Shown here one piece after another: positions 20,121-29,701 of a stretch of DNA of 40,172 bases. The translations under genes were made by a program, and so were the position numbers. The notes beneath the pieces are model-generated. The model saw only the letters and a list, made by a program, of their open reading frames with translations. It was not told where the DNA came from and did no database searches. The stretch comes from a virus: the IMG/VR virus record IMGVR_UViG_3300028423_001158, positions 1 through 40,172 of that record, one strand, 5' to 3'. Each line of letters opens with the position of its first letter. The first letter of the stretch is position 1.

Positions 20121-21476
20121 ATGGGCGCGGCAGCAGGACCTAAAATCGTAAATGATAATTTGATATTATCGTTAGATCCAGCGAACAGTAAATCATATCG
20201 CGTTGATAAAAATCTTCTGAATCCATCTGAATGGACTGTCGGTACTGGCTCGACACCTAATTTTAATGATAATGGTCGTGCTGATGAAAACGTCCGAATT
20301 ATCGACAAAGACCCTTTTGGTAATGATGCAGTTATCTGGGAATGTAGACCAAGTGATTCGTCGAGTAATTCTGACGGTGGTTGGAATTCTAGTATTGTGC
20401 CTGTAGATGAAAATTTTATGTATAGATTTTCTGTATGGGTGAAAAGAGATGTTCTAGGTGATGGACATTTTTATCTTGGTAACGACGGTTATGACGATTC
20501 TAGCGAAATAGGAGTCCTTAGGAGATCAAGCGGATCAGGTACTACTAATTATTACTTTGAAGTAAATACTGACTGGAATGATTGGAGTGAGAACGAACTA
20601 AATAAATGGTATCTTGCAGTTGCCCATCAATGGCCATCCGGGTCTGGCACAGGAGCAGATCATCCTGATACTGGTATATATGATCTGAATGGAAATAAGA
20701 TATCAAATGATCCCAGTGATTCAATATGGAAAGCCGGTACAACGAGGACTCGACATCGATGTTATCTTTATTACTCGGTGGTTAATACAACTCGCCAACA
20801 GATGGTATATCCTCGGATTGATAAAATTGATGGATCCGAACCATCAGTTGAGGATCTCATTAATAATAAAATAAATGATTCTTATCTCTTTGATATAAGT
20901 GGTAATGGTAGTAATGGAACATTAATAAATGATCTAGAATTTAACCCTGATAATAATGGGAATATAAACTTCAACGGTACAAATGGCAAATATATCGATC
21001 TTCCAGTTATAAATTTAACTGATTTTATAACAGTTTTTATATGGGTAAATCTAAATTCGGTACGATCTCATTGTATGGTAAATACCTATGGAGGCGGAGG
21101 TAGTAGTAATCACTGGATCCTAGAAACCACAACTGGTAATGAATTGAGAGTATTTTTAGATGATGGGTCCTCAGGAAATTGGACAGAATCTGGATTTACT
21201 CTTAATACAAATCAATGGTATCAAGTAGGATTTACTTATGACAACAATGGAAAAATATTGAATCAGTACGTAAATGGTGAAAAGGTTTCTTCAAATTCAA
21301 TAACAAAGAATAATATAGATTTATCACAAAGAAATCCTAGAATTGGCGCAAGAAGAGACGACGGTGATACTCCTACAGATGGTGTAATATCAAACTGTAG
21401 TATATATGATAATTTATTAACTGATGAAGAAATAAAACAAAATTTTCAAGCACTTCGTGGACGTTATGGTATCTGA
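20121..21476 (+). CDS. LamG/jelly-roll adhesin with an extra inserted domain
   Basis: 451 residues, about twice the size of its four paralogues. It begins with the family start (KIVNDNLILSLDPANSKSY, ~8-26) but then departs into ~220 residues that the paralogues lack (NLLNPSEWTVG ... FMYRFSVWVKRDVLGDGHFYLG ... ELNKWYLAVAH), text like a carbohydrate-binding jelly-roll module. The family text resumes at ~258 (SYLFDISGNGSNGTL) and goes through LamG-like strands (YIDLPVINLTDFITVFIWVN, NQWYQVGFTYDNNGKI) to the family ending EEIKQNFQALRGRYGI. LamG/concanavalin-like domains commonly bind sugars, so a receptor-binding role on glycans is likely but not shown. The next gene starts 2 nt after the stop. 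Confidence 0.65.
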   Translation: MGAAAGPKIVNDNLILSLDPANSKSYRVDKNLLNPSEWTVGTGSTPNFNDNGRADENVRIIDKDPFGNDAVIWECRPSDSSSNSDGGWNSSIVPVDENFMYRFSVWVKRDVLGDGHFYLGNDGYDDSSEIGVLRRSSGSGTTNYYFEVNTDWNDWSENELNKWYLAVAHQWPSGSGTGADHPDTGIYDLNGNKISNDPSDSIWKAGTTRTRHRCYLYYSVVNTTRQQMVYPRIDKIDGSEPSVEDLINNKINDSYLFDISGNGSNGTLINDLEFNPDNNGNINFNGTNGKYIDLPVINLTDFITVFIWVNLNSVRSHCMVNTYGGGGSSNHWILETTTGNELRVFLDDGSSGNWTESGFTLNTNQWYQVGFTYDNNGKILNQYVNGEKVSSNSITKNNIDLSQRNPRIGARRDDGDTPTDGVISNCSIYDNLLTDEEIKQNFQALRGRYGI

Positions 21477-21478
21477 TT

Positions 21479-22189
21479 ATGGCGACTAATTATTCACCAA
21501 AGATTTCTACTGATGGTCTTATTCTCTGCCTCGACGCAGCGAATCCGAAATCATATCCGGGGTCTGGAACGACGTGGTTTGATTTAAGTAAAAATGGTAA
21601 TCATGCTTATGGCCAGGATGACGGTGGAGCTTCAATAGATAGTTTAAATTTTCCTATTTACGAAACTGAAAATAACGGAAGATTTTTATTTGATGGGTCA
21701 AGATCGTTAATTATACCGACTAATATGGGCGACCATACCACTGGTGCTCATGAAATGTGGTTTTACAGAAATACTTCTAATGCAAATGATTATATTGCGG
21801 ATGCTAGAAATGGAACGGGAAGTTGGTGGTTAACCAATTACCAAAGTAATGATAATATTGATATACACGGTAGACTAGAAGCCGATGATCCTCTTCCTCA
21901 CACCGATAATTCAAATTGGTGGTTTCGTTGGTTACACGTTGTTATTATGAGCACGGATGGATCTAATAGTAGATTATTCATAAACGGGGAAGAGATATTA
22001 TCGCCTAATATAAAGGATAATCAGTCTCTTAATATGAATCTTGGTTCGAATTTTATAATAGGAGGTAGATATACTGCTAGTGGAAGATGGATAGGCTATT
22101 TTTCCTTATATAAAATATATAGTAGAGAATTGACACCAGACGAAATCAAACAGAACTTTAATGCCCTTCGAAATAGGTATGGTTTATAA
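21479..22189 (+). CDS. LamG/jelly-roll adhesin, paralogue 2
   Basis: 236 residues. The N-terminal cap is NYSPKISTDGLILCLDAANP, then SYPGSGTTWFDLSKNGNHA; the variable middle has GRFLFDGSRSLIIPTNMGDH, EMWFYRNTSNANDYIAD and RWLHVVIMSTDGSNSRLFINGE; the ending is LTPDEIKQNFNALRNRYGL. This is the concanavalin A-like LamG layout used by many phage and bacterial adhesins. Its N-terminus and middle are closest to the product at 23145 (DYxxDARN-GxWxLxNY). It ends in a one-base TAATG overlap with paralogue 3. No signal peptide, as expected for a virion part. A sugar-binding role is inferred from the fold only. Confidence 0.65.
   Translation: MATNYSPKISTDGLILCLDAANPKSYPGSGTTWFDLSKNGNHAYGQDDGGASIDSLNFPIYETENNGRFLFDGSRSLIIPTNMGDHTTGAHEMWFYRNTSNANDYIADARNGTGSWWLTNYQSNDNIDIHGRLEADDPLPHTDNSNWWFRWLHVVIMSTDGSNSRLFINGEEILSPNIKDNQSLNMNLGSNFIIGGRYTASGRWIGYFSLYKIYSRELTPDEIKQNFNALRNRYGL
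21524..21549 (+). repeat. 26-bp direct repeat, copy 1
   Basis: A perfect 26-bp string starting CTCTGCCTCGACGCAGCG inside the 5' cap of a LamG gene, present again at 22234-22259 and 23924-23949. It encodes LCLDAANPK and is richer in GC than its surroundings. Confidence 0.85.
22154..22170 (+). repeat. 17-bp direct repeat in LamG 3' cap, copy 1
   Basis: AACTTTAATGCCCTTCG at the 3' end of the gene, encoding NFNALR. Identical copies lie at 22849-22865 and 24557-24573, always about 15-20 nt before the stop codon. Confidence 0.85.
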
Positions 22190-22884
22190 TGGCACTCTCA
22201 CATAATCCGCGTCTAGTAACCGACGCCCTTGTTCTCTGCCTCGACGCAGCGAATCCGAAGTCGTATCCGGGAAGTGGGACGACGTGGAAAGATTTGAGTG
22301 GGAATGGCAATGACGGATTTTTTGTTAGTAACCCTCTTTTCAATGAATTTCCTAAAAGCTATTTTACTTTTGACGGAGTAGATGACAGAATAGAAGGCAA
22401 TTTAGATTATAATGAAAGTCCTCCAGGCTGGACTGGTATTTTATGGGCAAAACAAAATGCATCGATATTAACAAATGGTTCGGGGAGACAAGGATTAGAG
22501 TTGGGTTTCAATTTCAACACTAACATAGTAGGCGGAAACGTAGAAGATACCTCTGGAGGAGATGTTTCAACAAACTTTGATGTGCCAGAAAACTTAATTT
22601 CAGAGTGGAATATGATTGTAGGCACATACGACCAAAATAATCTTTCATTTTATATCAATGGCAAATTTGTTAATGAGAATACCGTCGGTTCAAGAACAAT
22701 TGCAACTTTTAATGAGTTTTATATCAATGATACACTAGCTAGCGTTATGGACACTGGAGTGTTCGGAAGTAGCAATGCGCACGTTGCAGGTGATGTTGCT
22801 ATTGCACAAATATACACTCGCGCTCTCACCGAAGCAGAAATAAAACAAAACTTTAATGCCCTTCGTGGTAGGTATGGTATATAA
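22189..22884 (+). CDS. LamG/jelly-roll adhesin, paralogue 3
   Basis: 231 residues. N-terminal cap MALSHNPRLVTDALVLCLDA, then SYPGSGTTWKDLSGNGNDG; LamG-like strands YFTFDGVDDRIEG, WTGILWAKQN, EWNMIVGTYDQNNLSFYING; ending LTEAEIKQNFNALRGRYGI. Its cap is nearly identical in DNA to that of the product at 23879 (from about 22206, with only scattered changes to about 22270), while the middles are unrelated beyond the fold. ATG overlaps the previous stop by one base, so translation is coupled. Carbohydrate-binding adhesin by fold; the ligand is unknown. Confidence 0.65.
   Translation: MALSHNPRLVTDALVLCLDAANPKSYPGSGTTWKDLSGNGNDGFFVSNPLFNEFPKSYFTFDGVDDRIEGNLDYNESPPGWTGILWAKQNASILTNGSGRQGLELGFNFNTNIVGGNVEDTSGGDVSTNFDVPENLISEWNMIVGTYDQNNLSFYINGKFVNENTVGSRTIATFNEFYINDTLASVMDTGVFGSSNAHVAGDVAIAQIYTRALTEAEIKQNFNALRGRYGI
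22234..22259 (+). repeat. 26-bp direct repeat, copy 2
   Basis: Identical to 21524-21549 and 23924-23949. In this copy the match with 23924 continues further downstream (GAAGTCGTATCCGGG). Confidence 0.85.
22849..22865 (+). repeat. 17-bp direct repeat in LamG 3' cap, copy 2
   Basis: Identical to 22154-22170 and 24557-24573. Confidence 0.85.
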
Positions 22885-22888
22885 TATT

Positions 22889-23143
22889 ATGTTCGAAACA
22901 AGAAAATATGCAATAATACACACATCACAAATTGACTCCGTCAACTTCTCTGATGTACTTGAGACCTCCGCAGACACCTGCCGATACTCGGTCGACGGGA
23001 CAAAAACATTCGTGAAGTGGGAGGGCGAAATGCCAGAGTGCGTTGCTGTGCTAGTTACCGCCGAAGGGCCGTACACTCACGACGAGATTCTTGAGGTACT
23101 GAGTTCTGACGAGTGGACTCCGCAAGAGGAAGAGGTGGTTTAG
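22889..23143 (+). CDS. Small conserved protein of unknown function inside the LamG array
   Basis: 84 residues from ATG at 22889, 4 nt after the previous stop; an upstream in-frame ATG at 22856 lies inside the preceding gene's conserved end and is rejected. The text (KYAIIHTSQIDSVNFSDVLE, TSADTCRYSVDGTKTFVKWE, GPYTHDEILEVLSSDEWT) is one I recognise from fibre regions of marine T4-like phages, where its function is not known. It is acidic, with no membrane segment. From about 22915 the DNA is clearly richer in GC than the phage background. It may be a small adaptor or chaperone for the neighbouring adhesins, or simply a passenger moved with the cassette. Confidence 0.65.
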   Translation: MFETRKYAIIHTSQIDSVNFSDVLETSADTCRYSVDGTKTFVKWEGEMPECVAVLVTAEGPYTHDEILEVLSSDEWTPQEEEVV

Positions 23144-23144
23144 G

Positions 23145-23879
23145 GTGGCGACTAACTATTCGCCTAAGATTTCCACCGATGGTCTTGCTCTTTGTCTTGA
23201 TCCAGCTAATCCAAAGTGTTTTACTCCCGGAGAAACTACCTGTAGGAATCTTGTGACAGAAGGTGTTGTTACCGGAGCGAGTGGTACTCCAGGATCTGGT
23301 TCACATTCGCCTAATTCATCCAATTTTCCATCATTCAGTTCACAAAATGTCGGTGTATTTGATTTTGCTGGTGGAAAGGGAATGAATTGCGAAGAAGACC
23401 TTGGCGGATCAACCGGTGAACTTACATTGATTTTGTGTTTTTATAGGTCAAATTCTAGTGGAACAGATTATTTTACTGATGCGCGTAACGACGGCGGACA
23501 ATGGTTTCTATCAAATTATTCGGGTGAGAATATCAACTATACCAATGATCTGAGATATAACTTTGATGCAAGTTACAATCCAGCCTCGTCAGATTTTATT
23601 AATCACTGGTTTCACATGGCAGTAACATCCGACGGTAACGGATCTTTGTTATACCTAAATGGTTATGAGATTTCATCGCATCCAAAGTATAGAAATAGTT
23701 ACGTGTCGACAACAAGTCTTGATGAAGCACTTGGTAGAAACTTTCGTATCGGTACAAGATACACAACTTCTGGTCAATGGGTTGGGCTAATGGGTCCAAT
23801 CTATGCTTATAAGCGAAAGATGTCCGCGGAAGAAATCTATCAAAACTTCAGCGGTCTTAGAAACAGGTATGGTATATAA
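23145..23879 (+). CDS. LamG/jelly-roll adhesin, paralogue 4 (GTG start)
   Basis: 244 residues, starting with GTG one base after the previous stop (TAGGGTG). The cap TNYSPKISTDGLALCLDPAN matches paralogue 2, but SYPGSGTTW is replaced by CFTPGETTCRNLV. The middle has VGVFDFAGGKGMNCEEDL, YFTDARNDGGQWFLSNYSG, HWFHMAVTSDGNGSLLYLNG and NFRIGTRYTTSGQWVG; the ending MSAEEIYQNFSGLRNRYGI is the most divergent of the set. LamG fold by pattern; glycan binding inferred. It is coupled to paralogue 5 by a TAATG overlap. Confidence 0.65.
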   Translation: MATNYSPKISTDGLALCLDPANPKCFTPGETTCRNLVTEGVVTGASGTPGSGSHSPNSSNFPSFSSQNVGVFDFAGGKGMNCEEDLGGSTGELTLILCFYRSNSSGTDYFTDARNDGGQWFLSNYSGENINYTNDLRYNFDASYNPASSDFINHWFHMAVTSDGNGSLLYLNGYEISSHPKYRNSYVSTTSLDEALGRNFRIGTRYTTSGQWVGLMGPIYAYKRKMSAEEIYQNFSGLRNRYGI

Positions 23880-24592
23880 TGGCGCTCTCTCATAACCCTC
23901 GTCTAGTAACCGACGGTCTTGTCCTCTGCCTCGACGCAGCGAATCCGAAGTCGTATCCGGGCGAAGGAAACGAATGGTACGATTTATCAGGCAATAACTT
24001 TCATATGGGTCTCAAAAATTCTCCCACATTTAATGCCACTGATCGAGTTTTTGAACTGGACGGATCAAATCAATATGGAGCATGCGATGGTAGTGTCAGT
24101 GGATCGACCCCTGCTACCGTAAGCAACCTTGGTGTTGAACAAGATAATCCCAAAACGGTGGTAGCCGTTTGCCAAATAAGAGAAATTGGCTCTACTAATC
24201 AAGGTTTATTTGATTTAGGAGATTCGGGTTCTACAGGTAGACATTACTGTCTTCGTCTTAACGGCTCATACACAAGCTGGAGAGCACAATTTTGGTCAAC
24301 TCCAGACTATGATTTTCTCTATGATGGAAGAAATAATTTTACTTTTTACAATATTGTTTATGGCGCTGATCAAATCGGTAGAACATATGGTAACAATGCT
24401 GAATTGTTAGGTCAAGACGGTGGATCATTTTCTCTTAACACTGCGGGAAGTAGACCATTTGAAATGGGCAGATACACCGGCGCAAGTTATGGTGGATTCA
24501 GAGTGCAAATGTATATAGTCTACAACCGCGCCCTCTCAGAAGCCGAAATCAAACAGAACTTTAATGCCCTTCGCGGTCGTTATGGGATATAA
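23879..24592 (+). CDS. LamG/jelly-roll adhesin, paralogue 5
   Basis: 237 residues. The cap MALSHNPRLVTDGLVLCLDA and NPKSYPGEGNEWYDLSGNNF is nearly identical to paralogue 3. The middle differs (RVFELDGSNQYGACDGSVSG, KTVVAVCQIREIG, GLFDLGDSGSTGRHYCLRLN). The ending LSEAEIKQNFNALRGRYGI is again near-identical to paralogue 3. So the gene has a conserved 5' end, a private centre and a conserved 3' end. The stop codon overlaps a perfect T4 late promoter, TATAAATA, and no gene is coupled downstream, so it is the last member of the operon. Confidence 0.65.
   Translation: MALSHNPRLVTDGLVLCLDAANPKSYPGEGNEWYDLSGNNFHMGLKNSPTFNATDRVFELDGSNQYGACDGSVSGSTPATVSNLGVEQDNPKTVVAVCQIREIGSTNQGLFDLGDSGSTGRHYCLRLNGSYTSWRAQFWSTPDYDFLYDGRNNFTFYNIVYGADQIGRTYGNNAELLGQDGGSFSLNTAGSRPFEMGRYTGASYGGFRVQMYIVYNRALSEAEIKQNFNALRGRYGI
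23924..23949 (+). repeat. 26-bp direct repeat, copy 3
   Basis: Identical to 21524-21549 and 22234-22259, at the same codon positions of a paralogous LamG gene. Confidence 0.85.
24557..24573 (+). repeat. 17-bp direct repeat in LamG 3' cap, copy 3
   Basis: Identical to 22154-22170 and 22849-22865. Confidence 0.85.
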
Positions 24593-24915: not shown

Positions 24916-25524
24916 ATGGCTAATTTAAAAAACACTACAATAGAAAACTCTGTAGAGATACAAACGTCACAAATTAAGAAAAAGTCTGCTAATAGTACTG
25001 CTCTAGATCTAAATGATATGCCATTAGATGCGATATATATTCGCAAATTTGTCACTCAACACGACCCCGCATCTAGATCCACTGGGACTTCTTGGACACT
25101 TGCTTATACATTCCCGACAATCACTGACTTTCAAAAAAATTCTAAGATATTATTTTTCTATTCAATACCTTTGCGAAACAATTCTACATCGTGGGGTGGT
25201 TGTTATCTTGAGCCACAAGTACAGTTTGATGGGGGTTCTTGGCAGAGCATGGGGAGTTCGGGGTATGATGCCGTGATGTATTTAGGATGTAGCTCAATTA
25301 GAACATATAGAAATAAGATATTATTAGAGCCGAATATTAATTCAAACTTTTCTGCTAGATTTCGAATTTATTATAGAAGTTATGACGGTACTATAGAATG
25401 GTCATCAGATGGTAGAGATAATGGAGAGGTAAGTGGGACTGCACCCTTATTAAATAGCTCAGTTAATAACTTTTTTTATGCAACTATACAAGTAAAAGAA
25501 TTAGCTAAGATTAATGGTGGATAA
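24916..25524 (+). CDS. Fibre-region protein, ~200-residue family, paralogue A
   Basis: 202 residues, start MANLKNTTIENS. The family core is RNNSTSWGGCYLEPQVQFDG followed by GSWQSMGSSGYDAVMYLG, then a beta-rich stretch (SARFRIYYRSYDGT) and an ending with YATIQVKELAKING. The products at 25874 and 26473 share all these landmarks. The MANLKNTT start resembles that of the fibre at 19343 (MATLKNTRINDAGF) and is common in marine T4-like phage fibre regions. The layout suggests a single beta-sandwich of tip or adhesin type. No enzymatic motif is seen. The upstream chaperone remnant supplies its promoter and leader. Confidence 0.6.
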   Translation: MANLKNTTIENSVEIQTSQIKKKSANSTALDLNDMPLDAIYIRKFVTQHDPASRSTGTSWTLAYTFPTITDFQKNSKILFFYSIPLRNNSTSWGGCYLEPQVQFDGGSWQSMGSSGYDAVMYLGCSSIRTYRNKILLEPNINSNFSARFRIYYRSYDGTIEWSSDGRDNGEVSGTAPLLNSSVNNFFYATIQVKELAKINGG

Positions 25525-25527
25525 AAA

Positions 25528-25881
25528 ATGAAAGTAAAATTTTTGAAAGTCAACTGCTCAAACAACTTTGAAATTGAAAACCAGTGGGAAATAGGCGATG
25601 GTATCAAGAGTAATCTTATTGATGAAGAATATTATAGTTATTTGACAGAAATGTCTGAGTATTACGGAACTGATAACTTGGATAATCATTATTACAAAGA
25701 TAACCTGACTGGTATAGTGTGCGGAGATAAGCATTACATCCTATGCGTGGATGAAACTGATGATATTTTTCATATTATAAAAGATGATATAGAAATTCTT
25801 GACAATCCATATACTGAGGAAGAATGGGAAAACTGGTTAAGTTATATTAAAAATATTTGGAATAACGCACAGAATGGCTAA
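25528..25881 (+). CDS. Small acidic protein of unknown function inside the second array
   Basis: 117 residues, strongly acidic, rich in Tyr, Asn and Asp (NLIDEEYYSYLTEMSEYYGT, DNLTGIVCGDKHYILCVDET, YTEEEWENWLSYIKNIW). I do not recognise the family. The ATG follows the previous stop by 3 nt and the 3' end overlaps the next start by 8 nt (ATGGCTAA), so it is translated as part of the array. Like the gene at 22889 it is a small acidic protein placed after the first members of a paralogue array, and its C-terminus (PYTEEEWENWL) weakly recalls GPYTHDEIL...EWT there. No membrane segment or signal peptide is visible. Confidence 0.55.
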   Translation: MKVKFLKVNCSNNFEIENQWEIGDGIKSNLIDEEYYSYLTEMSEYYGTDNLDNHYYKDNLTGIVCGDKHYILCVDETDDIFHIIKDDIEILDNPYTEEEWENWLSYIKNIWNNAQNG

Positions 25882-26473
25882 TCTTAAGAATACGACAGCG
25901 GATTCAGTAAAAACTTCTAAAGTGTTGGATTCTTCGTCAAATTTGACGATTGATTTAGATAATTTTGAATTAAATGGTTATTATACAAGAAAAATATATA
26001 ACCAAACTACATCATCAACTTACACAATTAACTCTGGTAGGCAGTCGTTTGAGCTTGGACCTACATTTTCAAATGTAAGTGGATTCAAACCCAGTTCATT
26101 AATTTATATTTATTATCATATACCAACAAGAAATGATAATGACCCAGCATGGGGAGGGATTTATGTTGAACCTCAGGTCAGATTTAATCTAGGCTCTTGG
26201 TATAGCCTTGGTGGCACTGGGTTTGATTTGATGTTTAATGATGGCAGACAGATAATGTCATATAATAACCAACATATTTTTGACCCTCAGCAAACATCTG
26301 GGTTTTCAATGCAATTCAGATTTTATTTTTCTGTTTATGATAATACAACGGACATAAACGGAAGTCATGATATTAATTCTCTAAGAGGAAATGGCTCTCT
26401 TATGAGCGGTGACAATGGTAGGCAGCATTATATGTCACTTAAGGTGGAAGAACTAGCAAAACTCAAAACATAA
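25874..26473 (+). CDS. Fibre-region protein, ~200-residue family, paralogue B
   Basis: 199 residues, start MANLKNTTADSVKTSKVLDS. The family core reads DPAWGGIYVEPQVRFNLGSW and YSLGGTGFDLMF, then FSMQFRFYFSVYDNTTDING, SHDINSLRGNGSLMSGDNGR and QHYMSLKVEELAKL. The last part is close to paralogue C (SHSINSRSGTAPLMSGNNGN). It overlaps the preceding gene by 8 nt and the next ATG by one base. Presumed small adhesin or fibre tip; the function is not established. Confidence 0.6.
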   Translation: MANLKNTTADSVKTSKVLDSSSNLTIDLDNFELNGYYTRKIYNQTTSSTYTINSGRQSFELGPTFSNVSGFKPSSLIYIYYHIPTRNDNDPAWGGIYVEPQVRFNLGSWYSLGGTGFDLMFNDGRQIMSYNNQHIFDPQQTSGFSMQFRFYFSVYDNTTDINGSHDINSLRGNGSLMSGDNGRQHYMSLKVEELAKLKT

Positions 26474-27060
26474 TGGCAAACTTAAAGCAAACAACAATAG
26501 ATGGCGATCTGGAAGTGGGCAAATTACTTGACACTTCAGGTAATGAAGTGGATATTGATGGTATTGACTCAGATAGTAGATATTTACGGCATATATATTC
26601 ACAATATAATTCAACATCGTATACTATGACTGGCTGGATAAATGGTCCTAGTTTCCCCGCAACACACACATTCAAAGGGAACTCTTTAATTCTTTTGTAT
26701 TATTACTCTCCTAATAGGAATAATATAAACAATTGGGGGGGTATGTATCTTGAACCACAGGTACAGTTTGATGGCGGTTCTTGGCAAAGTCTTGGTTCCT
26801 CGGGTTATGATGGTGCAATTATGATTTACGATCATGATGCTATTGCCAGTTATGATAATCATATTCTAATAAATCCTAATATTTCAACAAATTTTACAGC
26901 GGGGTTTAGATTCAATGCCAGGGATTATAATGGTACGTCATACATAAACGGAAGCCATTCTATTAATTCTAGAAGTGGTACTGCACCATTAATGAGTGGA
27001 AATAATGGCAATCAACATTATTTTCATATTATAGTAGAAGAATATGCTCTATTTAATTAA
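26473..27060 (+). CDS. Fibre-region protein, ~200-residue family, paralogue C
   Basis: 195 residues, start MANLKQTTIDGDLEVGKLLD. The core NNWGGMYLEPQVQFDGGSWQ and SLGSSGYDGAIM is almost the same as in paralogue A, also at DNA level (about 26751-26812 against 25210-25270). The ending SHSINSRSGTAPLMSG and QHYFHIIVEEYALF is closer to paralogue B. So paralogue C looks like a mosaic of A-like and B-like segments, in line with recombination in the array. No terminator is seen after it; the next late promoter is at 27089. Confidence 0.6.
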   Translation: MANLKQTTIDGDLEVGKLLDTSGNEVDIDGIDSDSRYLRHIYSQYNSTSYTMTGWINGPSFPATHTFKGNSLILLYYYSPNRNNINNWGGMYLEPQVQFDGGSWQSLGSSGYDGAIMIYDHDAIASYDNHILINPNISTNFTAGFRFNARDYNGTSYINGSHSINSRSGTAPLMSGNNGNQHYFHIIVEEYALFN

Positions 27061-27783: not shown

Positions 27784-28218
27784 TCAATTATCCAGCAAAT
27801 CTAATATCTCAATCACAGTTTCTATCTTCTGTTTATTGTGTTTTTTGATCAGTGTATTTTTCAAACCAAAATGCAAAGGTCTTGGCCATTTTAGATATTT
27901 GACCCAGGCATATCCGTCGTGTTCGTGATTAAGATAAGGAATAAATTCCTTTTCGCATATACACAAATAGGTATGATATTTAAAAAGATTATTTTGAGCA
28001 ACAAATGTTTCTAAAGGAAGAATTTTTTTAATTTCAACTTTGCCTATTTCTTCAAAAATCTCTCTTTTTAATCCTTCCCAAGGAGTTTCCTGTTTTTCAT
28101 TTGTACCTCCAACAAGCCCCCACAGATTGGATTTTTTGCTCTGTGTTCTGTGTAGAAATAGGAATCTTTTATATTGAAGATTGTAAAATAAAGCACCGCT
28201 GCATATAGTACTTTTCAT
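27784..28218 (-). CDS. Nudix hydrolase
   Basis: 144 residues from ATG at 28218. A longer frame back to TTG at 28275 exists but runs inside the gp15 gene. The Nudix box fits GX5EX7REUXEEXGU: a Gly after LVG, TNEKQ, E, then TPWEGLK, REIFEEIG; only the last position, normally hydrophobic, is Lys. The box begins about 38 residues into the protein, as usual. Nudix enzymes cleave nucleoside diphosphates linked to another group; substrates in phages include dNTPs, ADP-ribose, Ap4A and capped RNA, and the sequence does not tell which. It is the last gene of the minus-strand unit gp14-gp15-nudix, 13 nt after gp15, with no clear ribosome binding site, which suggests coupling to gp15. Confidence 0.85.
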   Translation of the reverse strand: MKSTICSGALFYNLQYKRFLFLHRTQSKKSNLWGLVGGTNEKQETPWEGLKREIFEEIGKVEIKKILPLETFVAQNNLFKYHTYLCICEKEFIPYLNHEHDGYAWVKYLKWPRPLHFGLKNTLIKKHNKQKIETVIEILDLLDN

Positions 28219-28231
28219 ACAGTTAATTATA

Positions 28232-29701
28232 TTAAAAGTCCAAGGTCCAAGTTCCGTTTGGATATTCTCCTTCAACGGACAACAACCATGTACTGTTTTG
28301 AAATTTATATTGAATGCTAGTATTCAGATTTGTTGTATAATATGTTTCGTTTTCAGAAGCCTGAGAAGGATCAAATACCGTTTCCCAACTAGATCCGTTC
28401 CATTCTATAATGCTGTTTGCATCAGCAACAGCGTCACTACCGTCAAGGTTTTTCCAAGCATCTGCGCCGTCGGTGTTTTCTGCATTACCAATCGATGCTA
28501 GAATAAGAATTCTAGGATTTGCAGATAGGTCTAGGTCTTGCGGATTAGATTTTGTCGGATCAATAATATAATCGATTTTTGACCGCTCGCCTGTTGAACT
28601 TGCAAACACAGTGTCAGTTGGCAAAGAATCGATGTCCCAATTAATTACTGCTTCGTCGATATTTGTAGGAGAAACAGCAAATTCTCCCACAATATCATAG
28701 TTATAATCGGAACGACGCAGTCTTAGTTGGCTTATTCCTTCGTTGAATTTTCCCGGAAGAGCTTCGATTAGTTGCGGCCAATTCATCGCGCCTACAACAC
28801 CGTTCCTTACTAGTTTTGCAGTATTATTCATAACCAATAGATCTAGATTTTGATAAGTTGTTTTTAGTGTTGTAAAGATGCTTTCGTTTATTTCGTAATC
28901 AGCAAGCGCTCTGGCTCTTTCTAGATCGCCGTCGTTGTTAATAAAAATATTAGAATCAGTGACTGCATCTCCTTCTGCAAGCGTAAAGTCGATGTCAGTT
29001 GTAGCATCAACTAAATCTTGTTTAGAATTGTGTATTCGAGAAATAATATCAGTTATAACTCCCATTCGTTTAACTTTGGCAGGTGGCGCAATATATATTG
29101 GTGTAATAAAACTAAGTGTTGCTACGTCAATTTCAGACTCTGTTCCTTGAGGTATCGATCGGCTGCTCCAGGTTACGGTATCTAGCCTTACTGTGCTTAG
29201 ACTGGTCCAGTCAAGATAGTTGTCTGTTGTCTGTATTTCAAGGCTAGGATTAAACAGCATTAATAGTTGTTCTATAATCTGTAATTTTTGATCAGTGTTT
29301 GTGCTCCAAATATCCAACGAAACAGTAAGGTTATACGGAGTTGGCATGAGTCTTTCGACTGTGTAATTCTTTCCTTCGGTTTTGAGATATTCGTTACCTT
29401 CGAGATCAAATGCTCTTTCACGAATGTTAACACGATTTACATAAGATGAATCAGCCAATCTAGAACTGTCAAGTTCTAGTGCAGTTACATACACAGACAT
29501 GCGTGGTGCAGAGGGTATTTTGTTTTCTGAATTATCTCTAAGAATTGAGCCAATTTGACGAGTAATATCTCCGTACATTACTGGAACTGTTTTAATATTG
29601 CCCGAACTGTCTTTGTAGGAAAATCCACTCATCATGCGAATGATTTGAGTAAGATAACGTCTGAGCTGGCCGTCATAATAATGATCTAGTTGATTTGACA
29701 T
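28232..29701 (-). CDS. 15: Tail sheath stabiliser gp15
   Basis: 489 residues against 272 in T4. The N-terminal part follows T4 gp15: HYYDGQLRRYLTQIIRMMSG, KTVPVMYGDITRQIGS, SAPRMSVYVTALELD, then RLMPTPYNLTVSLDIWSTNT with QKLQIIEQLLMLFNPSLEI, which lines up with the T4 segment containing SPIKMIYELSIFTRY and FQIVEQILPYFQPHF. gp15 caps the top of the contractile tail and joins it to the neck. The extra ~200 C-terminal residues hold a tryptophan-rich decoration (NSIIEWNGSSWETVF, NTSIQYKFQNSTWLLSVEGE) like those in gp14 and gp18 here. The start overlaps the gp14 stop by one base. Order and pairing with gp14 support the call. Confidence 0.8.
   Translation of the reverse strand: MSNQLDHYYDGQLRRYLTQIIRMMSGFSYKDSSGNIKTVPVMYGDITRQIGSILRDNSENKIPSAPRMSVYVTALELDSSRLADSSYVNRVNIRERAFDLEGNEYLKTEGKNYTVERLMPTPYNLTVSLDIWSTNTDQKLQIIEQLLMLFNPSLEIQTTDNYLDWTSLSTVRLDTVTWSSRSIPQGTESEIDVATLSFITPIYIAPPAKVKRMGVITDIISRIHNSKQDLVDATTDIDFTLAEGDAVTDSNIFINNDGDLERARALADYEINESIFTTLKTTYQNLDLLVMNNTAKLVRNGVVGAMNWPQLIEALPGKFNEGISQLRLRRSDYNYDIVGEFAVSPTNIDEAVINWDIDSLPTDTVFASSTGERSKIDYIIDPTKSNPQDLDLSANPRILILASIGNAENTDGADAWKNLDGSDAVADANSIIEWNGSSWETVFDPSQASENETYYTTNLNTSIQYKFQNSTWLLSVEGEYPNGTWTLDF

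What the first reader, a model, noticed from the sequence alone, without database searches (positions are those of the whole stretch)
20121..24592. Array of five LamG adhesin genes with conserved ends and variable centres
Five tandem jelly-roll genes share 5' caps (26-bp perfect repeat at 21524, 22234 and 23924; longer near-identity between 22206 and 23896 onwards) and 3' caps (17-bp perfect repeat at 22154, 22849 and 24557), while the centres are hardly alike. Genes are joined by TAATG overlaps. Conserved borders around private centres are what is expected if centres are exchanged or genes gained and lost by homologous recombination at the caps. This looks like a cassette system for diversifying glycan-binding tips. 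No reverse transcriptase or integrase is in the window.
Basis: partly seen in the sequence, partly recalled or inferred. Interest (0 to 1): 0.7.

Follow-up and report, generated by a model that had tools for sequence, protein, structure and literature searches.

The report
Phage lectin genes with swappable centres
This virus of bacteria carries a row of five lectin-like genes whose ends stay fixed while their middles are exchanged with other viruses, probably so that it can change which cell-surface sugars it grips; the same arrangement occurs in hundreds of aquatic phage contigs.

Summary
Five tandem LamG_3 (ConA-like jelly-roll) genes sit in the tail-fibre region of a T4-like aquatic phage. 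Comparison with public phage contigs supports the cassette idea directly. Sibling phages with 80-100% identical flanks and caps carry unrelated centres (20-40% nt) in the same slot. Centres also turn up in other slots under other caps (L084 slot 2 and L155 slot 1: centre about 88-100% nt, 5' caps 72-75%). In the window, g5 is a three-part mosaic: its caps follow neighbour g3, its centre (residues 31-212, 83 of 92 informative sites) follows a gene of another phage, and the 5' switch lies just past the 26-bp repeat.

The caps are more than recombination sites: they are family-wide protein signatures with short N-terminal tags in non-random order. An overlooked 84-aa gene inside the array (22889-23143) belongs to an apparently virus-specific family that sits beside LamG genes in 93 of 96 cases.

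I read this as slot-bound scaffolds with exchangeable lectin centres plus a dedicated partner protein. It works like T-even gp38 adhesin swapping but uses a different protein and architecture. Glycan binding and the partner's role are inferred.

The parts
20121..21476 (+). g1, LamG protein, 451 aa, type C tag (MGAAAGPKIV), extra N-terminal insert before the LamG domain
   Evidence: PF13385 82.5 bits; caps shared only at protein level
21479..22189 (+). g2, LamG protein, 236 aa, type A tag (MATNYSPKIS)
   Evidence: PF13385 49.4 bits; DNA-level caps shared with g3 and g5
22189..22884 (+). g3, LamG protein, 231 aa, type B tag (MALSHNPRLV)
   Evidence: PF13385 42.5 bits; AF2 jelly roll, mean pLDDT 80.5
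22889..23143 (+). 84-aa companion gene, conserved partner of LamG arrays
   Evidence: 26-member alignment; 93 of 96 non-redundant copies adjoin a LamG gene; no Pfam, PHROG or PDB match
23145..23879 (+). g4, LamG protein, 244 aa, GTG start, type A tag (VATNYSPKIS)
   Evidence: PF13385 42.4 bits; 41% aa to g2 along its length
23879..24592 (+). g5, LamG protein, 237 aa, type B tag; mosaic gene
   Evidence: residues 1-30 and 218-237 follow g3, residues 31-212 follow L110; PF13385 23.1 bits, below cut-off
21524..21549 (+). 5' cap perfect 26-bp repeat, copy in g2
22234..22259 (+). 5' cap perfect 26-bp repeat, copy in g3
23924..23949 (+). 5' cap perfect 26-bp repeat, copy in g5
22154..22170 (+). 3' cap perfect 17-bp repeat, copy in g2
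22849..22865 (+). 3' cap perfect 17-bp repeat, copy in g3
24557..24573 (+). 3' cap perfect 17-bp repeat, copy in g5
23951..23980 (+). inferred 5' breakpoint interval of the g5 mosaic (between residues 24 and 34), just 3' of the 26-bp repeat
   Evidence: informative sites
24527..24532 (+). inferred 3' breakpoint interval of the g5 mosaic (between residues 216 and 218), inside the 72-nt 3' cap block
   Evidence: informative sites; block D1

Best explanation
The array is a set of lectin-fold virion genes in a T4-like phage. Each gene has a fixed, slot-specific frame: a short N-terminal tag, the first beta strand, and the last strand plus C-terminal helix. The frame encloses an exchangeable jelly-roll centre. 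Shown: within this gene family centres are replaced in place and moved between slots and between phages, with breakpoints in the conserved caps, and g5 of the window is such a mosaic. Inferred: exchange is by homologous or near-homologous recombination during mixed infection, the caps giving both enough identity and a foldable join; the tags dock each protein at its place in the virion; the centres bind surface glycans; and the 84-aa partner helps the LamG proteins fold or assemble.
For: In-place swaps: slots of L026, L031 and L046 with flanks and caps mostly 80-100% nt and centres 20-50% nt, while slot 1 of L031/L046 is 87-100% along its length; L084/L155/L136, L181/L185, L021/L033. Slot jumping: L084 slot 2 against L155 slot 1, centre about 88-100% nt, 5' cap 72-75%; L024 (A) against L135 (C), centre 84% aa, caps 64%. 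14 of 43 pairs with related centres have centres exceeding caps by 5 points or more, the reverse of the family norm (median cap 53%, centre 28%). Window: g5 informative sites 15:1, 9:83, 8:2 along the gene, 0 of 20,000 permutations as extreme; silent sites of the g2/g3/g5 caps above chance, centres at chance. Fold: confident jelly roll with most cap residues at pLDDT above 90, many lectin-fold matches. Tag order non-random in 42 arrays (permutation P 0.004). Partner family adjacent to LamG in 93/96, none confirmed in 84,980 bacterial and archaeal genomes by a single short-pattern scan.
Against: No close relative of the window's own array was found in IMG/VR or INPHARED, so its rate of change is unknown. 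The window caps are short (26 and 17 bp perfect), and no recombinase was examined. Glycan binding, virion location and the partner's function are untested here. Contigs are metagenomic and partly related, so counts are not independent events. Tag types were set by simple patterns, and some arrays break the A-B-C order.
Confidence: 0.85

Rival explanations
1. Duplication followed by point-mutation divergence under selection: the caps are conserved because they carry the fold, the centres diverged fast, and nothing was exchanged.
For: Caps are conserved at protein level across unrelated phages; g2/g4 are related along their whole length; g1 and g4 caps are at chance on silent sites.
Against: Cannot give centres more alike than caps (L084/L155, L024/L135), nor random-level centres between flanks 97-100% identical, nor the three-part g5 pattern. 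It probably explains why caps are conserved at protein level and the old g1 and g4 caps.
Confidence: 0.08
2. Assembly artefact: short cap repeats shared by co-occurring phages led to chimeric contigs that look like swaps.
For: Caps are short near-repeats; L031 and L046 come from the same sample.
Against: The L026 array recurs in contigs from four samples, compared at 100% over 12,992 nt for L026/L028. Old swaps such as g5/L110 (centre 62% aa) are too diverged to be assembly errors. Mosaic genes are open over their full length.
Confidence: 0.04
3. Targeted diversification by a dedicated element: a diversity-generating retroelement or an invertible or site-specific cassette system.
For: Conserved borders around variable centres resemble such systems in outline.
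Against: No reverse transcriptase or integrase among the window genes scanned with PHROGs; only two short inverted-repeat pairs, 21 nt at 81% and 16 nt at 94% complementarity; whole centres of about 480 nt differ rather than adenine-templated codons.
Confidence: 0.03

Closest known systems
T-even gp38 adhesin and gp37 tip swapping (Tetart et al. 1998, title and summary as cited in PMC3797505)
   Same: Recombination between conserved motifs exchanges adhesin specificity in T4-like phages.
   Different: Here the module is a ConA-like LamG domain, repeated as a multi-gene array with slot-specific N-terminal tags and a dedicated small partner gene. Comparison with gp38 motifs is from memory.
Host recognition cluster of pelagimyophages and cyanomyophages (PMC7029224)
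   Same: Hypervariable island of fibre genes in the structural region; concanavalin A domains listed among putative receptor-binding proteins.
   Different: That work describes island-level variation; no LamG arrays, cap and centre anatomy or partner gene were found in the passages read.
Metaviromic islands of marine phages (PMC3909814)
   Same: Under-recruiting regions rich in lectin-like and carbohydrate-binding proteins.
   Different: Variation by read recruitment; no within-gene centre exchange in the passages read.
Synechococcus phage S-SKS1 and Flavobacterium phage immuto LamG loci
   Same: Isolated phages with LamG genes and the same small partner gene; immuto LamG genes are annotated 'structural protein'.
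   Different: Annotated as hypothetical, structural or fibre proteins; no cassette behaviour noted in the records.

Membership tests
Laminin_G_3 / ConA-like lectin superfamily | Match to PF13385 above the curated cut-off | tested here: met
   g1-g4 above 27.6 bits; g5 at 23.1 bits, E 9e-5, so g5 alone does not reach the cut-off
Laminin_G_3 / ConA-like lectin superfamily | Beta jelly-roll fold | tested here: met
   AF2 model of g3, pLDDT 80.5, pTM 0.82; 494 PDB matches at E <= 0.001, best TMq about 0.7, all 50 listed ones lectin-like binding domains
Laminin_G_3 / ConA-like lectin superfamily | Carbohydrate binding | not testable with these tools
   needs glycan arrays
T-even gp38-type adhesin | gp38 homology or gp38-type fold | tested here: not met
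   PHROG matches are virion or unknown families, none named gp38 adhesin; fold is ConA-like
T-even gp38-type adhesin | Specificity module swapped by recombination at conserved flanking motifs (works like) | tested here: met
   module exchange shown; that the module sets specificity is not tested
Diversity-generating retroelement | Reverse transcriptase with template and variable repeats | tested here: not met
   no reverse transcriptase among the window genes scanned; the genome is a fragment, so absence elsewhere is not shown
Shufflon or invertible tail-fibre cassette | Inverted repeats at segment ends and a site-specific recombinase | tested here: not met
   caps are direct repeats; only two short inverted pairs; no recombinase among scanned genes
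Hypervariable host-recognition island of T4-like phages | Non-syntenic fibre region between conserved tail and neck genes in sister phages | tested here: met
   14 sister contigs with 62-75% aa flanking gene carry other genes there and no tandem LamG array; one has a single LamG protein

The most novel reading that the evidence does not exclude
A widespread, previously undescribed diversification system of aquatic T4-like phages: ordered slots, each defined by a short N-terminal address tag, hold interchangeable lectin centres that circulate among slots and phages, with a dedicated 84-aa assembly partner.
Probability: 0.5. Interest if true: 0.75.

Novelty: new variant of a known kind. Interest (0 to 1): 0.62.

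Why it matters
It shows at base resolution how marine and freshwater phages can change a putative receptor-binding protein without breaking its assembly. Swapping specificity at conserved borders is known from T-even adhesins; here the unit is a lectin domain in multi-gene arrays with ordered tags. The partner family gives a simple search handle: one scan hit 574 or more related loci in IMG/VR. It makes testable which centres match which host glycans.

Tried and rejected
Exact DNA caps searched across IMG/VR: none elsewhere, so the repeats are not a shared mobile site. Centre-only searches with g2 and g5: no confirmed relative; the g5 relative L110 came up through the partner-gene scan, which shows that short exact peptide patterns miss relatives at 60% identity. 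Megablast of the region against phage records: none. Silent-site test over all ten gene pairs: weak (P 0.03), because g1 and g4 caps are old; the signal is in g2, g3 and g5, a subset chosen after seeing the data. Partner protein against Pfam, PHROGs and PDB by sequence and fold: nothing. Conserved caps alone were rejected as proof of exchange, since the same protein caps occur throughout the family. The neurotoxin binding-domain hits were read as a shared lectin fold only.

Full report
What is there. The window is a 40,172-base stretch of a 40,745-base virus record with T4-like tail genes: sheath, tube, sheath stabiliser, head closure and several large fibre genes. The five reported genes are LamG_3 proteins. 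The reported repeats are exact.

Are the caps more than protein conservation? Partly. The same protein caps (about LVLCLDAANPKSYPGSGTTWxDLSGN at the start, ALSxxEIxQNFNALRGRYGI at the end) occur throughout the family in unrelated phages, so cap conservation alone proves nothing. But for g2, g3 and g5 silent sites in the caps agree at 60-69% against about 42% by chance, while centres are at chance (pooled P 0.0008; the subset was picked after seeing all ten pairs). The caps of g1 and g4 are at chance, hence old.

Relatives. Fourteen sister contigs of the same lineage carry other genes at the place and no tandem LamG array, though one has a single LamG protein. Searching with g3 and later with the partner protein gave arrays of up to 13 LamG genes. 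In three related phages (L026, L031, L046) three slots keep order, flanks and caps while centres differ completely; slot 1 of L031 and L046 is the same gene from end to end. Using the partner gene as a clock, pairs with at least 90% identical partner genes had 7 swapped, 9 conserved and 6 otherwise unrelated neighbouring slots by my thresholds. In 30-nt windows, identity is mostly 80-100% through the flank and first 100-150 nt, falls to 20-40% in the centre, and rises again in the last 60 nt.

Slot jumping. If caps were merely better conserved, centres should never clearly exceed them. Among 25,200 pairs the median is 53% for caps and 28% for centres, yet 14 of 43 pairs with related centres have centres ahead by at least 5 points. 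The clearest is L084 slot 2 against L155 slot 1: sibling phages, one centre at about 88-100% nt under two different tags.

The window itself. g5 shares 62% of its centre with a gene of L110, a contig whose partner gene is 94% identical in DNA to that of isolate S-SKS1. Informative sites run 15:1 for g3 in residues 1-30, 9:83 in 31-212 and 8:2 in 213-237, with none of 20,000 permutations as extreme. The 5' switch lies between residues 24 and 34, directly past the 26-bp repeat; the 3' switch lies between residues 216 and 218, inside the 72-nt 3' cap block. I take this as a centre replaced inside a g3-like frame.

Structure and likely function. The g3 model is a confident jelly roll. The cap parts (strand 14-19, strand 201-209, helix 215-229) lie in blocks with mean pLDDT of about 84 to 97, and parts of the centre fall to 40-68. 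Fold and profile matches are lectin-like domains: sialidase modules, an arabinanase module, pentraxins, toxin binding domains, and phage proteins named LamG or virion structural protein in S-SKS1 and S-PM2. Glycan binding by the centre is inference from the fold.

Tags and order. N-terminal tags fall into types A (YNP-like), B (HSP-like) and C (AGP-like). In 42 non-redundant arrays A-B (18) exceeds B-A (7) and B-C (16) exceeds C-B (9), permutation P 0.004. Types were set by simple patterns, and the window reads C-A-B-small-A-B. That tags are docking addresses is my proposal.

Partner gene. The 84-aa protein at 22889-23143 has relatives at 43-63% identity. In 93 of 96 non-redundant cases a LamG gene is a direct neighbour; part of that set was fetched through LamG, but the independently fetched loci L107-L186 show the same. 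It is in isolates S-SKS1 and immuto, was not confirmed in GTDB genomes (one short pattern only), and has a confident small alpha/beta model without a PDB match. An assembly helper is the likeliest role, not shown.

Literature. Recombination between conserved motifs swapping adhesin specificity is known for T-even phages (cited in PMC3797505), and fibre islands are known in marine T4-like phages (PMC7029224, PMC3909814). I found no description of LamG arrays with slot-bound caps or of the partner family, within an open-access library only.

Limits. Thresholds for 'swapped' are mine; related contigs are counted more than once in places; the recombination machinery was not examined; the window's own array has no close relative on record.

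Noticed in passing
window 22889-23143: 84-aa gene of an apparently virus-specific family tied to LamG genes, with no match in Pfam, PHROGs or PDB; taken into the main finding.
   Followed up: yes
window 24916-27060: Three further tandem paralogues (24916, 25874, 26473; 35-45% aa) with a shared N-terminus MANLK and an unrelated 117-aa ORF between the first two: the same 'array plus small gene' layout in another protein family.
   Followed up: no
L019 4988-14768: Thirteen LamG genes in a row, mixed tag types, with the partner gene inside the array.
   Followed up: partly
window 21479-24592: 5' caps of g3 and g5 (53-55% G+C) and the partner gene (49%) are richer in G+C than the window (38%) and the centres (35-41%), as if caps and centres had different sources.
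   Followed up: partly
L001 2204-7090 and L013 1866-6752: In sister contigs the syntenic place holds a block of non-fibre genes, including a 503-aa ORF that looks like a flavin-dependent halogenase by its N-terminus (from memory, not tested).
   Followed up: no
window 27784-28275: Minus-strand gene next to the variable region is kept at 58-69% aa in most sister contigs, marking the edge of the island.
   Followed up: no
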